Part shown: one piece after another, positions 21,004-24,434 of the stretch
Position numbering within the stretch: the stretch's first letter is position 1
How the letters are laid out: every line of letters starts with the position of its first letter
Assembly (NCBI RefSeq): GCF_016862795.1
Contig: NZ_BONQ01000110.1
Coordinates: 1 to 64,000 of the forward strand
Direction of reading: 5' to 3'
Source of the DNA: Dactylosporangium siamense
Lineage (GTDB): Bacteria; Actinomycetota; Actinomycetes; Mycobacteriales; Micromonosporaceae
DNA: 64,000 bases
Position numbers and translations under genes: made by a program
The notes under the pieces: model-generated
Seen by the model: only the letters and a program-made list of their open reading frames with translations
Told to the model about the DNA's origin: nothing
Database searches by the model: none

Positions 21004-21234
21004 ATGGATGCCGGTTCGGTCCGTCGGCGACACGAAAGTCAGTTGCTGAGCCTGCCGGACGTCATCGGTGTCGGCATCGGTCGGGACGACGCGGGGGCGG
21101 AGGTCATCGACGTCTACGTGCAGCGTGCAGTGCCCAGGCGGGACCTGGACCTCGGCGCGACGATTCCCGACGCACTCGAGGGAGTGCCGGTCCGAGTCGT
21201 CCCCATTGGAGAGGTGACCGCCCAGGGTAATTGA
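21004..21234 (+). CDS. Free-standing NAL1-like N-terminal domain protein
   Basis: A 76-aa protein that matches the N-terminal domain of the protease-fold protein encoded next. Compare DVIGVGIGRDD...VIDVYVQRAVPRRDL...IPDALEGVPVRVVPIGEVTAQ here with NVIGFGLGVKW...MLVFVTSKIPEAGL...VVPGRL...VVAIGHVAAQ there. This module is known to me only as the N-terminus of trypsin-fold proteins related to plant NAL1. As a separate gene it could act in trans as an inhibitor, chaperone or scaffold. GGGGAGA about 8 nt upstream of ATG 21004. First gene of a probable three-gene operon. Confidence 0.65.
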   Translation: MDAGSVRRRHESQLLSLPDVIGVGIGRDDAGAEVIDVYVQRAVPRRDLDLGATIPDALEGVPVRVVPIGEVTAQGN

Positions 21235-21270
21235 CGCGCGTCAGCACGCGCCCCGGAGGTGGCGGACACC

Positions 21271-22407
21271 ATGACCCAGAATGAAATGATGCGCGGACCG
21301 GCCGGTGGGCGGCTCAGTGAGGCCGCTCGGGAACAGGCCCAGCAACAACTGCTCGACCCGCAGGGCCCGGCCGCGAACGTCATCGGTTTCGGGCTCGGCG
21401 TGAAATGGACGGACGGCCGGCCGACCGGTCAGCCGGCAATGCTGGTCTTCGTCACCAGCAAGATCCCGGAGGCGGGCCTCAGCCGCCGCGACGTCGTGCC
21501 CGGCCGGCTCGACGACGGGACCCTCACCGACGTCGTCGCCATCGGCCACGTCGCCGCCCAGCAACGCGTCCTGAGCCCGCCGGACATGGAGGTCTTCGTC
21601 CGCGTGCCGGACACCGTGCTGGAGCGGCGCCCGACCGAACTGCCGCCGGAGCGCCCCGCGCCGATGGAGGCCGAGCCGCAGCTGCTCGCCCGCCGGATGC
21701 GACCCTGCCCGGCCGGGTTCTCGATCGGCAACGTGGCCATCACCGCGGGCACCCTCGGCAGCGTCGTCTACGACTTCCTGCCCGGCGCGACCACCGACCC
21801 ACCGGCCCCCGGCCTCGGCGCGCCGCCGCGCTACTACGTGCTGAGCAACAACCACGTGCTGGCGGCCAGCAACGCCGCACCGATCGGCAGCTCCATCGTG
21901 CAGCCGGGCCCGTTCGACGGCGGCGTCGACCCCCGGGACCGGGTGGCCACGCTCAGCCGCTTCATCCCGATCCAGTTCGCGCCGCAGGTGCCGCTGGACC
22001 GGCACAACAACGTCGTGGACGCCGCGATCGGACAGTGCGAGTTCTCCGACGCGACCCGCGAGGTGTACTTCAACGGGCCGCCGCGGGCCTGGCGGCGCAA
22101 GGCGAACGTGGCCGTCGGTGACCGGGTCCGCAAGGTCGGCCGCACGACCAACGCCACCTACGGCCGCATCATCAGCGTCGACGCGACCGTTGACGTCAAC
22201 TACGGCTCGGCCGGCGTGGCCCGCTTCCACGACCAGATCATCACCACCGCCATGTCGGCCGGTGGGGACTCCGGGTCGCTGGTGACGAGCTACGACAACG
22301 TCGCGATCGGGCTGCTGTTCGCCGGCTCGTCGCAGGCCACCATCCTCAACCACATCGAGACCGTGCGGTCCCTGCTGCGCGTCGAGATCGCCGAACTGCT
22401 GGCCTGA
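21271..22407 (+). CDS. Trypsin-fold (S1-like) protein, NAL1 type
   Basis: A 378-aa protein. Residues about 35-98 form the VIGFGLG-type N-terminal domain shared with the preceding gene. A linker and a chymotrypsin-like domain follow. The likely triad is His195 (VLSNNHVLAAS), Asp250 (NNVVDAAIGQ) and Ser334 (SAGGDSGSLV). There is no signal peptide, which is unusual for an S1 protease, so it should act in the cytoplasm or be exported by another route. ATG 21271 has GGAGG 11 nt upstream; the GTG at 21259 overlaps that site. Confidence 0.75.
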   Translation: MTQNEMMRGPAGGRLSEAAREQAQQQLLDPQGPAANVIGFGLGVKWTDGRPTGQPAMLVFVTSKIPEAGLSRRDVVPGRLDDGTLTDVVAIGHVAAQQRVLSPPDMEVFVRVPDTVLERRPTELPPERPAPMEAEPQLLARRMRPCPAGFSIGNVAITAGTLGSVVYDFLPGATTDPPAPGLGAPPRYYVLSNNHVLAASNAAPIGSSIVQPGPFDGGVDPRDRVATLSRFIPIQFAPQVPLDRHNNVVDAAIGQCEFSDATREVYFNGPPRAWRRKANVAVGDRVRKVGRTTNATYGRIISVDATVDVNYGSAGVARFHDQIITTAMSAGGDSGSLVTSYDNVAIGLLFAGSSQATILNHIETVRSLLRVEIAELLA

Positions 22408-22430
22408 GCCCGGACGGGAGGAACACCACC

Positions 22431-22853
22431 ATGAGCACTGACGTCACCGAACACACCGACGTGCAGCGCACGTACTTCAACCCGAAGGGCACCCAGGTCG
22501 GGTCCCGCGAGGAGGCCTTCGCCGCGCCGGAGGCCGTCAGCACCAAGGTGAAGCTGACCCTGCACAACGCCGGCGTCAGCTTCCAGATCTCCGCCGAGAT
22601 CAACCTGGGCACCTACCCGTTCGTGCTGACCGGCGGCCAGATCACCGCCGGCATCTGCGGCGCGCCGTGGACCATCACCGGCGGCGTCCTCGGCGACGAC
22701 CTGCGCCTGGAAGCCCAGCGGGCGGGTGAGGGCTCCTGCGCCAACTCGATCATCGTCGTCGGCGAGTACGTGCAGCCCGGCGCCTACCGCGGCACGTACG
22801 GCTTCAACGGCACGAGCAGCGCGTTCCGGCACACGACCGTCTTCCAGGCCTGA
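22431..22853 (+). CDS. Hypothetical beta-rich protein
   Basis: A 140-aa protein of unknown family. From residue about 38 it alternates strand-like segments (KVKLTLHNAGVSFQISAEINLG, PFVLTGGQITAGI, GAPWTITGGVLGDDLRLEAQR, SIIVVGEYVQPGAYRGTYGF), suggesting a small beta barrel or sandwich. Two Cys (ICGAPW and SCANS) could pair. There is no signal peptide. It sits 23 bp downstream of the trypsin-fold gene with a GGGAGG ribosome site, so it is probably co-expressed and could be its partner or substrate. Confidence 0.55.
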   Translation: MSTDVTEHTDVQRTYFNPKGTQVGSREEAFAAPEAVSTKVKLTLHNAGVSFQISAEINLGTYPFVLTGGQITAGICGAPWTITGGVLGDDLRLEAQRAGEGSCANSIIVVGEYVQPGAYRGTYGFNGTSSAFRHTTVFQA

Positions 22854-22879: not shown

Positions 22880-22912
22880 GGTCCCGGGGGCATGACCCCC
22901 GCCCCCGGGACC
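22880..22912. terminator. Bidirectional hairpin terminator
   Basis: A perfect 12-bp stem (GGTCCCGGGGGC pairing with GCCCCCGGGACC) with a 9-nt loop lies between the convergent genes ending at 22853 and 22920. It has no U-run, as is common in GC-rich actinomycetes. Confidence 0.75.
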
Positions 22913-22919
22913 GGCACCG

Positions 22920-24434
22920 TCAGCTCGCGTAGGCCTTGACCTCCAGCAGCCCGACCGAGTTCGTGCCGTTGGACTGCAGCACGACCCGCAGCCGGGCGGT
23001 GCTGACCTGGGTGAAGGTGACCGTGATGTACGCGTTGGCGGTCACCGGGTACCCACTGGCGCCCGGCACGTCGGCATAGGCGCTGCCCGTCCAGTACTGC
23101 AGCCGCCAGCTCGACGGCAGGTCGATGCCCTGGTTGTCGTCGAACAGGTACACCTGCGCCCGCCGGACGGACACGGCCGCCGGCCAGGTCAGCTCGGCCC
23201 ACTGCTGGCCGCTGTTGGGCCAGGTGCCCCACCGCGGGTGCACGGTGTCGTTCGACGACGACGGGTCGATCCCGTCGTTGATCGCCGCGACCGACTCCCA
23301 GGCCGAGGTGTAGGACGCCGACGCGACCGCCGACCGCGCGAGGTTGCTGTCGGGCTGGGGGTTGGAGCCCTTGATGAGGAACAGGTTGTCCGCGACGTTG
23401 TAGTACTGCGACAGGTACGACCCGGCCGGCGGGTTGGTGCTGTAGTAGTCGTCGTGGTTGCAGTCGAGCCGGTCGTCGTGGGACCGGTTCGTGCACACGG
23501 TCCGCACGACCACGTTGTCGCCGTCCTTGTAGCACATGACGTCCCACTCGTCGGTGCAGTGGCCGTACCCGGACGCGTTCGGCGCGTTGTTGTTGACGGC
23601 GCCGAGGGTGTGGCCGAGCTCGTGCGCGGCGACCCCGGCTGACCAGCAGCCGTTGTCGGCGCGGGCGTACTCGGGCCCGCTGTTGGACCGGTTCGCGTCG
23701 CTCTTGCGGGTGTCGCCGGCCAGGCCGCCGATGCCGCAGTACACATTGGCGTCGACGAACTGCAGATACTTGCGGTCCGTCCTGGTGTAGCCGGCGGCCT
23801 TGACGGCGTTGAGCAGCGGCGCCCAGTCGTTGGCGTTGAGCGCGGCGTCGGCGATCTGCACGTCGCGCACGACCGGCCGGCACGCGCCGCTGACGGTCTC
23901 GGTGACGTACCGGACGTGCCGCTCGCCGCCGGTCTCCTTGGCGCTCTCGTTGAAGATCGTGTCGACGCCCTCGGCGAGGGTCCGGAACGTCTCCAGGTAC
24001 TGGGTGTATCGGCTGGTCGAGCCGTGGATGTACAAGACCTCGACCCGGCGGCCGCTGGTCCCGTCGCCCTCGCACACGGCCAGGGACTGGGCGGCGGGAG
24101 CCGCGGCGGCGAGCGCCGGCACGCCGGCCTTCACGGACAGCCCGGCGGGCGCCGCGTCGGGGCCGTGCGTGCACATGACCGGGCTGGTGCCCGTGACCTC
24201 CAGCAGGCCCGGTCCGCAGGGGCCGGCCGGGCGGCGCTGCAGCCCGGTGTAGATCAGACCCTTGGCGACATCGTCGGAGGGGAGATTGGCGGGGAGAGTC
24301 GTCCGGATGGTCCGGTCGCCGGCGAGTGCGGTGCCGGCGAAGGTGTTGAGGCCGAGGAGTCCGAGCGCTGCGGCGACCACGGCGGTGATCGCGACGGCGA
24401 CCCGGGTGGTGCCGGGTCGGGCGGATCTGGGCAT
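22920..24434 (-). CDS. Secreted zinc metalloprotease with F5/8C domain
   Basis: A 504-aa exported protein. The signal peptide (about residues 10-38) ends near AGTALAG. A reprolysin-like domain has HELGHTLGAVN at 271-281, where Asn replaces the usual third His; His292 (SGYGHCTDEWDVMCY) may be the third ligand, and Met300 the Met-turn. Several Cys pairs are present. Residues about 365-504 form a discoidin/F5-8C carbohydrate-binding domain (NLARSAVASASYTSAW...WAELTWP...VGLLEVKAYAS). It likely degrades surface- or polysaccharide-associated proteins. Confidence 0.82.
   Translation of the reverse strand: MPRSARPGTTRVAVAITAVVAAALGLLGLNTFAGTALAGDRTIRTTLPANLPSDDVAKGLIYTGLQRRPAGPCGPGLLEVTGTSPVMCTHGPDAAPAGLSVKAGVPALAAAAPAAQSLAVCEGDGTSGRRVEVLYIHGSTSRYTQYLETFRTLAEGVDTIFNESAKETGGERHVRYVTETVSGACRPVVRDVQIADAALNANDWAPLLNAVKAAGYTRTDRKYLQFVDANVYCGIGGLAGDTRKSDANRSNSGPEYARADNGCWSAGVAAHELGHTLGAVNNNAPNASGYGHCTDEWDVMCYKDGDNVVVRTVCTNRSHDDRLDCNHDDYYSTNPPAGSYLSQYYNVADNLFLIKGSNPQPDSNLARSAVASASYTSAWESVAAINDGIDPSSSNDTVHPRWGTWPNSGQQWAELTWPAAVSVRRAQVYLFDDNQGIDLPSSWRLQYWTGSAYADVPGASGYPVTANAYITVTFTQVSTARLRVVLQSNGTNSVGLLEVKAYAS

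What the first reader, a model, noticed from the sequence alone, without database searches (positions are those of the whole stretch)
21004..22853. Split-domain module: free NAL1-type N-domain, trypsin-fold protein and a beta-rich partner
The 76-aa protein matches the N-terminal domain of the next gene's trypsin-fold protein, including the VIGxGxG turn and the IGxVxAQ end. The protein has an intact-looking His-Asp-Ser triad but no signal peptide. The third gene encodes an unknown beta-rich 140-aa protein. A free prodomain-like copy beside its own protease suggests an in-trans inhibitor or assembly factor, with the third protein as substrate or effector. I know of no described system with this order.
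Basis: partly seen in the sequence, partly recalled or inferred. Interest (0 to 1): 0.6.

Follow-up and report, generated by a model that had tools for sequence, protein, structure and literature searches.

The report
Protease with a free N-domain partner
A small bacterial gene makes a stand-alone version of the front domain of the protease encoded next to it, and this pairing recurs across many bacterial phyla and an archaeon, which points to an undescribed partner subunit that probably regulates a protease family whose plant member, NAL1, controls leaf width.

Summary
Three co-directional genes encode a 76-aa free NAL1_N-type domain (free ND), a 378-aa NAL1-type trypsin-fold protein with its own N-domain (cis ND) and an intact His-Asp-Ser triad, and a 140-aa beta-barrel. 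The small protein's resemblance to the N-domain is true homology. In a scan of unannotated genomes, 41 of 50 protease loci have a free ND gene next to the protease, across 11 bacterial phyla and one archaeon. Two more have it fused to the protease C-terminus, five lack it, and two are cut by contig ends. Free and cis NDs are old, separate lineages: the free form has a short beta1-beta2 hairpin (about 9 residues, against 15). So p76 is a long-standing partner, not a recent copy. "Prodomain" is doubtful, because NAL1 crystal constructs contain the domain as an integral part and there is no signal peptide. Inhibition is untested. Several active proteases have lost the partner, which argues against an essential antitoxin-like inhibitor. 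The third gene is an add-on found only here and in three Streptomyces. Best reading: a dedicated regulatory or assembly subunit of an intracellular NAL1-type protease. I found no description of it in the papers available.

The parts
21004..21234 (+). p76: free-standing NAL1_N-type domain (free ND), helix-beta-beta-beta, short beta1-beta2 hairpin
21271..22407 (+). p378: NAL1-type trypsin-fold protein with its own N-domain (cis ND) and intact His-Asp-Ser motifs
21325..21561 (+). cis ND of p378 (15-residue beta1-beta2 hairpin with conserved Lys and TG motif)
21670..22395 (+). trypsin-fold domain of p378
22431..22853 (+). p140: predicted eight-strand beta-barrel, lineage-specific third gene
21232..21234 (+). 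TGA stop of p76; p76 and p378 lie in the same reading frame, separated only by this stop
22880..22912 (.). perfect 12-bp inverted repeat between p140 and the convergent gene, a possible bidirectional terminator without a T run
   Evidence: read directly; not picked up by the scan

Best explanation
The first two genes are a conserved two-gene unit: an intracellular NAL1-type serine protease and a dedicated partner built on the same N-domain fold. The most likely mechanism is that the free ND is made together with the protease, binds it as a separate subunit, and regulates its assembly or access to its active site. The binding surface could be the one used by the cis ND in an oligomer, or the catalytic domain itself. 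Shown here: homology, adjacency, often overlapping or closely spaced genes, co-inheritance, C-terminal fusions, and a consistent structural difference between free and cis forms. Inferred: physical binding and regulation. Open: whether the effect is activation, assembly or inhibition. The third gene is a sub-clade-specific accessory, possibly a substrate or ligand-binding protein.
For: 41 of 50 fetched protease loci carry the free ND next to the protease, across 11 bacterial phyla and an archaeon; two more carry it as a C-terminal fusion, five lack it and two are truncated by contig ends. Conversely, among the free NDs found by searching with the ND itself (E<=1.4e-4), about 12 of 16 lie beside such a protease. 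In 37 of 40 downstream pairs the ND starts within 200 bp of the protease stop, some overlapping it. The two fusions, in secreted deltaproteobacterial proteins, carry a short-hairpin, free-type ND at the protease C-terminus and no N-terminal ND. The window's free ND and cis ND each group with their Streptomyces counterparts (98/93 and 100/92), as expected of co-inheritance. Genome-wide searches of the window genome, Calidithermus, Amycolatopsis and a Streptomyces find exactly one free and one cis ND each. The one clade that lost its catalytic His (LSTNY, L041-L043) also lacks a free ND. The single-chain AlphaFold model gives both NDs and the trypsin domain high confidence (pLDDT about 94-97), with NAL1 as the nearest known fold.
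Against: No interface was obtained: the model's coordinates and predicted aligned error are not returned, so binding is inferred. Several lineages keep the protease without a free ND (L082, L085, L094, L095, L100, and the mycobacteria-like clade), so the partner is not strictly required. In the trypsin tree, starred branches force at least 5 changes of the 'none' label. An orphan free ND exists where the protease appears to have been lost (L036/L151).
Confidence: 0.6

Rival explanations
1. The free ND is an in-trans inhibitor: it occupies the active site or blocks the protease until it is removed, as free propeptide-like inhibitors do for subtilisins.
For: A free domain homologous to the protease's own N-domain, made first in the window-type operon. 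Loss of the catalytic His and of the free ND coincide in one clade. In one Streptomyces-like genome the ND survives without the protease.
Against: The domain is an integral part of the NAL1 crystal constructs, so it is not an obvious cleaved prodomain. Proteases with an intact Ser motif and no free ND anywhere in the genome exist. No match to any inhibitor family in Pfam. The C-terminal tail after the fold is short and varies in sequence and length, so there is no conserved active-site plug.
Confidence: 0.22
2. The free ND is a substrate adaptor or sensor: it binds a substrate or ligand and brings it to the protease, the cis ND being its docking counterpart.
For: Free and cis NDs are consistently different in the beta1-beta2 hairpin. 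NDs also occur at the end of other proteins, such as a lipoprotein-like protein (L115).
Against: No conserved third gene or common substrate appears beside the pair.
Confidence: 0.13
3. All three genes form one functional unit with p140 as the substrate or effector.
For: p140 lies directly downstream in all four members of the sub-clade (54-60% identical), with a 23-bp gap in the window.
Against: p140 is absent from all other loci with the pair and from every other genome in the sampled Actinomycetota. It can only be an accessory of one sub-clade.
Confidence: 0.2
4. The neighbourhood is chance or recent duplication without a functional link.
For: The pairwise score alone is modest.
Against: Recurrence in 41 of 50 loci, old separate lineages, co-inheritance and fusions.
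Confidence: 0.02

Closest known systems
NARROW LEAF 1 (NAL1), plant trypsin-like protease (PF25608 NAL1_N, PF25819 Nal1_C)
   Same: Same domain order (N-domain then trypsin fold). NAL1 entries are the top Foldseek hits of the model and the only PDB chains matched by the ND profiles below E 0.1. NAL1 also has the cis-type N-domain hairpin.
   Different: Low sequence identity (about 18% in the structural alignment); Nal1_C is below its cut-off. I found no free ND partner described for NAL1.
Trypco1/Trypco2, small trypsin-co-occurring proteins of bacterial conflict systems (Kaur et al. 2020, PMC7159879)
   Same: A small protein encoded beside a trypsin-like peptidase.
   Different: Free NDs match no Trypco model in Pfam and are homologous to the protease's own N-domain. 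No MoxR-vWA or VMAP genes were noticed nearby.
NucA-trypsin systems (Kaur et al. 2020, PMC7159879)
   Same: Related trypsin domains, and a recognisable N-domain in two protease-endonuclease fusions (L032, L146).
   Different: No endonuclease domain in the window module and no free ND seen beside those fusions.
Free propeptide-like protease inhibitors (I9 type) and the alpha-lytic protease pro region
   Same: The idea of a protease domain acting in trans as a separate protein (from general knowledge).
   Different: No sequence match. The predicted fold is a helix plus three strands, not the I9 topology. The proteases here look intracellular and keep their N-domain.

Membership tests
NAL1-type trypsin-fold protease | NAL1_N domain at the N-terminus | tested here: met
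   PF25608 at 27.0 bits, equal to the cut-off
NAL1-type trypsin-fold protease | Trypsin fold with His-Asp-Ser motifs | tested here: met
   LSNNH, NNVVDAAI, GDSGS; fold model and Foldseek
NAL1-type trypsin-fold protease | Nal1_C Pfam domain above cut-off | tested here: not met
   14.5 bits against 26.1; it is a bacterial relative, not a plant-type NAL1
NAL1-type trypsin-fold protease | Oligomeric assembly | not testable with these tools
   Single-chain prediction only
NAL1_N domain family (p76) | Homology to NAL1_N | tested here: met
   Profile-profile E 4.5e-22; 14 of 16 upstream-type free relatives hit PF25608. p76 alone does not reach the cut-off.
Trypco1/Trypco2 | Match to the Trypco domain models | tested here: not met
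   No Trypco match for p76 or for 26 free NDs at E<=1
NucA-trypsin system | NucA-type endonuclease fused to or beside the trypsin domain | tested here: not met
   None of the three proteins matches a nuclease in Pfam
Propeptide-type inhibitor (I9) | Match to an inhibitor or propeptide family | tested here: not met
   No match
Propeptide-type inhibitor (I9) | Inhibits the cognate protease | not testable with these tools
   Needs an assay
Known anti-phage defence systems | Match to PADLOC models | tested here: not met
   No match for the three proteins

The most novel reading that the evidence does not exclude
The free ND family is a dedicated subunit that controls NAL1-type proteases throughout Bacteria and some Archaea: an undescribed two-component protease system. 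Plant NAL1 would then descend from an enzyme whose cis N-domain now does alone what prokaryotes divide between a cis and a trans domain.
Probability: 0.45. Interest if true: 0.7.

Novelty: new variant of a known kind. Interest (0 to 1): 0.57.

Why it matters
NAL1 is a yield-determining plant protease, and I found no account in the accessible papers of how its N-domain works. A bacterial family in which the same domain exists both fused and free, in a two-gene unit with thermophilic members such as Calidithermus, offers a simple system to test that. It also puts a function hypothesis on a widespread small protein that is annotated only as 'hypothetical protein' in the public record where I could read the annotation of a clear member (Rubrobacter plasmid).

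Tried and rejected
Chance neighbourhood: rejected by recurrence. Recent duplication of the protease's own N-domain: rejected by the ND tree and the hairpin lengths. Trypco, known defence families and inhibitor families: no match. Mobile or phage origin: one IMG/VR contig and three phage-collection records (two are the same archaeal virus) carry a related protease; no free ND was found beside them. Viral relatives of p140: the only profile match is weak and covers about 29 residues, judged chance. A conserved neighbour beyond the pair: none outside the Amycolatopsis chromosomal locus. p140 as biotin-binding avidin: Foldseek hits are weak (best E 0.05, model pLDDT 68), so only a calycin/avidin-like barrel is suggested. 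First alignment for folding (A3) placed the free NDs on the cis columns and was replaced by A5. Literature searches for a description of a free NAL1_N protein or a bacterial NAL1 partner found none; the library is open-access only.

Full report
WHAT IS THERE. The window holds three co-directional genes between 21004 and 22853: p76, p378 and p140, with gaps of 36 and 23 bp. p378 carries a NAL1_N domain (PF25608, 27.0 bits, exactly the cut-off) followed by a trypsin fold with the motifs LSNNH, NNVVDAAI and GDSGS. No obvious signal peptide was seen on any of the three (by eye). p76 resembles the N-domain of p378 (30% over 80 columns). With relatives added, free-domain and N-domain profiles match at E 4.5e-22. 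The only PDB chains that either profile finds below E 0.1 are those of plant NARROW LEAF 1. 14 of 16 upstream-type free relatives hit NAL1_N in Pfam, though p76 itself does not.

RECURRENCE. I searched related genomes with p378 and the whole genome-contig collection with an alignment of close relatives, then scanned every fetched locus with profiles for the trypsin domain and the N-domain. Of 50 loci from genome contigs, 41 have a free ND gene beside the protease and two have a free-type ND fused to the protease C-terminus (L096, L102). Five lack it (L082, L085, L094, L095, L100) and two are truncated by contig ends (L067, L105). The pairs come from Actinomycetota, Acidobacteriota, Deinococcota, Spirochaetota, Bacillota, Pseudomonadota, Verrucomicrobiota, Thermodesulfobacteriota, KSB1, Bacteroidota, Chloroflexota and one euryarchaeote; many are metagenome bins, and Amycolatopsis is over-represented. 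The free ND lies upstream in the window, three Streptomyces, Acidobacteria, Calidithermus, a spirochaete and others. It lies downstream in Amycolatopsis, relatives from the window's own family, desulfobacteria, Siphonobacter and Chloroflexi, and divergently in two genomes. In 37 of 40 downstream pairs the ND starts within 200 bp of the protease stop; some overlap it. In the reverse direction, about 12 of 16 free NDs found by a search with the ND itself lie beside such a protease.

FREE AND CIS DOMAINS ARE OLD AND DIFFERENT. In the ND tree the cis label needs 3 changes against 41 for shuffled labels. The window's p76 groups with the Streptomyces free NDs (98/93), and its cis ND with the Streptomyces cis NDs (100/92). 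The tree rests on 82 columns, so many forks are unresolved. Independently of the tree, 56 of 61 cis NDs have exactly 15 residues in the beta1-beta2 hairpin, while free NDs have a median of 9 (range 5 to 13), and the two C-terminally fused NDs have 10. So p76 is not a recent copy of its neighbour's domain, and the fused ones are partners of the free type.

STRUCTURE. p76 and p378 lie in the same frame, separated by one TGA, so a table-4 read-through gives a natural single chain. With an alignment of 41 rows, AlphaFold2 gave pLDDT of about 94 for p76, 95 for the cis ND and 95 for the trypsin domain, pTM 0.72. NAL1 chains lead the Foldseek list (E 1e-14; TM by target 0.51-0.62), ahead of streptogrisin and alpha-lytic protease. 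Coordinates and predicted aligned error were not available, so no interface can be claimed. p140 (four sequences, pLDDT 68) is an eight-strand meander with weak avidin-like matches.

THE THIRD GENE. p140 relatives (54-60% identical) sit directly downstream of the protease in the three closest Streptomyces loci. No other relative was found among 346 sampled Actinomycetota genomes, the other loci, or the viral and plasmid collections. The three-gene order is therefore real but confined to one sub-clade; the constant unit is two genes.

LOSSES. Genome-wide searches found only the cis ND in the held genomes of the partnerless loci, while Calidithermus, Amycolatopsis and Streptomyces controls gave both. 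L082's genome was not held. In the trypsin tree the absence of the partner requires at least five changes along well-supported branches. One clade that lost the partner also replaced the catalytic His by Tyr (L041-L043). Most others keep the His-Asp-Ser motifs, so the partner is not an obligatory safeguard. Several partnerless rows are among the longest branches of the trypsin tree. That could mean changed constraint, but it could also mean that a diverged partner was missed.

MECHANISM. The simplest account is a dedicated subunit that binds the protease and regulates its assembly or active-site access. Homology, co-inheritance, gene spacing, fusions and the free/cis difference are shown. Binding and the direction of regulation are inferred. 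An inhibitor remains possible but has no specific support. 'Prodomain' is unlikely, because NAL1 crystal constructs contain the N-domain in the same chain and there is no export signal.

COMPARISON. By domain order and fold p378 is a bacterial relative of plant NAL1. It is not a member of the Trypco or NucA-trypsin systems of Kaur et al. 2020 (PMC7159879), though two NucA-trypsin-like fusions (L032, L146) have a recognisable ND. I found no description of a free NAL1_N partner. The paper library holds only open-access work, so this is not proof of novelty.

Noticed in passing
L151 6300-7001 (-), same as L036: Orphan free ND in a Streptomyces-like genome between relatives of the same flanking genes (a PhoX-like TAT protein and another conserved protein) that flank the three-gene operon in other Streptomyces; the protease and p140 appear lost and the ND tail is changed.
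   Followed up: partly
L115 1081-1710: A lipoprotein-like 210-aa protein ends in an ND without a protease nearby, so the domain also occurs in other architectures.
   Followed up: no
L144 2423-3412: The putative serine protease of the Aeropyrum coil-shaped virus has an N-terminal NAL1_N-like domain (E 2e-17).
   Followed up: partly
L041, L042, L043: A clade of NAL1-type proteins has Tyr in place of the catalytic His (LSTNY) and no free ND: probable pseudoproteases.
   Followed up: partly
L096 4908-6632; L102 4737-5825: Secreted deltaproteobacterial NAL1-type proteases carry a free-type ND at the C-terminus and none at the N-terminus.
   Followed up: partly
window 22880-22912: Perfect 12-bp inverted repeat between the convergent p140 and the minus-strand gene at 22920-24434, possibly a bidirectional terminator.
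   Followed up: no
window 22920-24434 (-): A secreted 504-aa protein with an HELGHTLGAVNNN zinc-protease-like motif is the convergent neighbour.
   Followed up: no
own genus, G198-G203: None of six other genomes of the window's genus has the protease (none at E <= 0.001), so the module is sporadic here; its closest relatives are in Streptomyces.
   Followed up: partly
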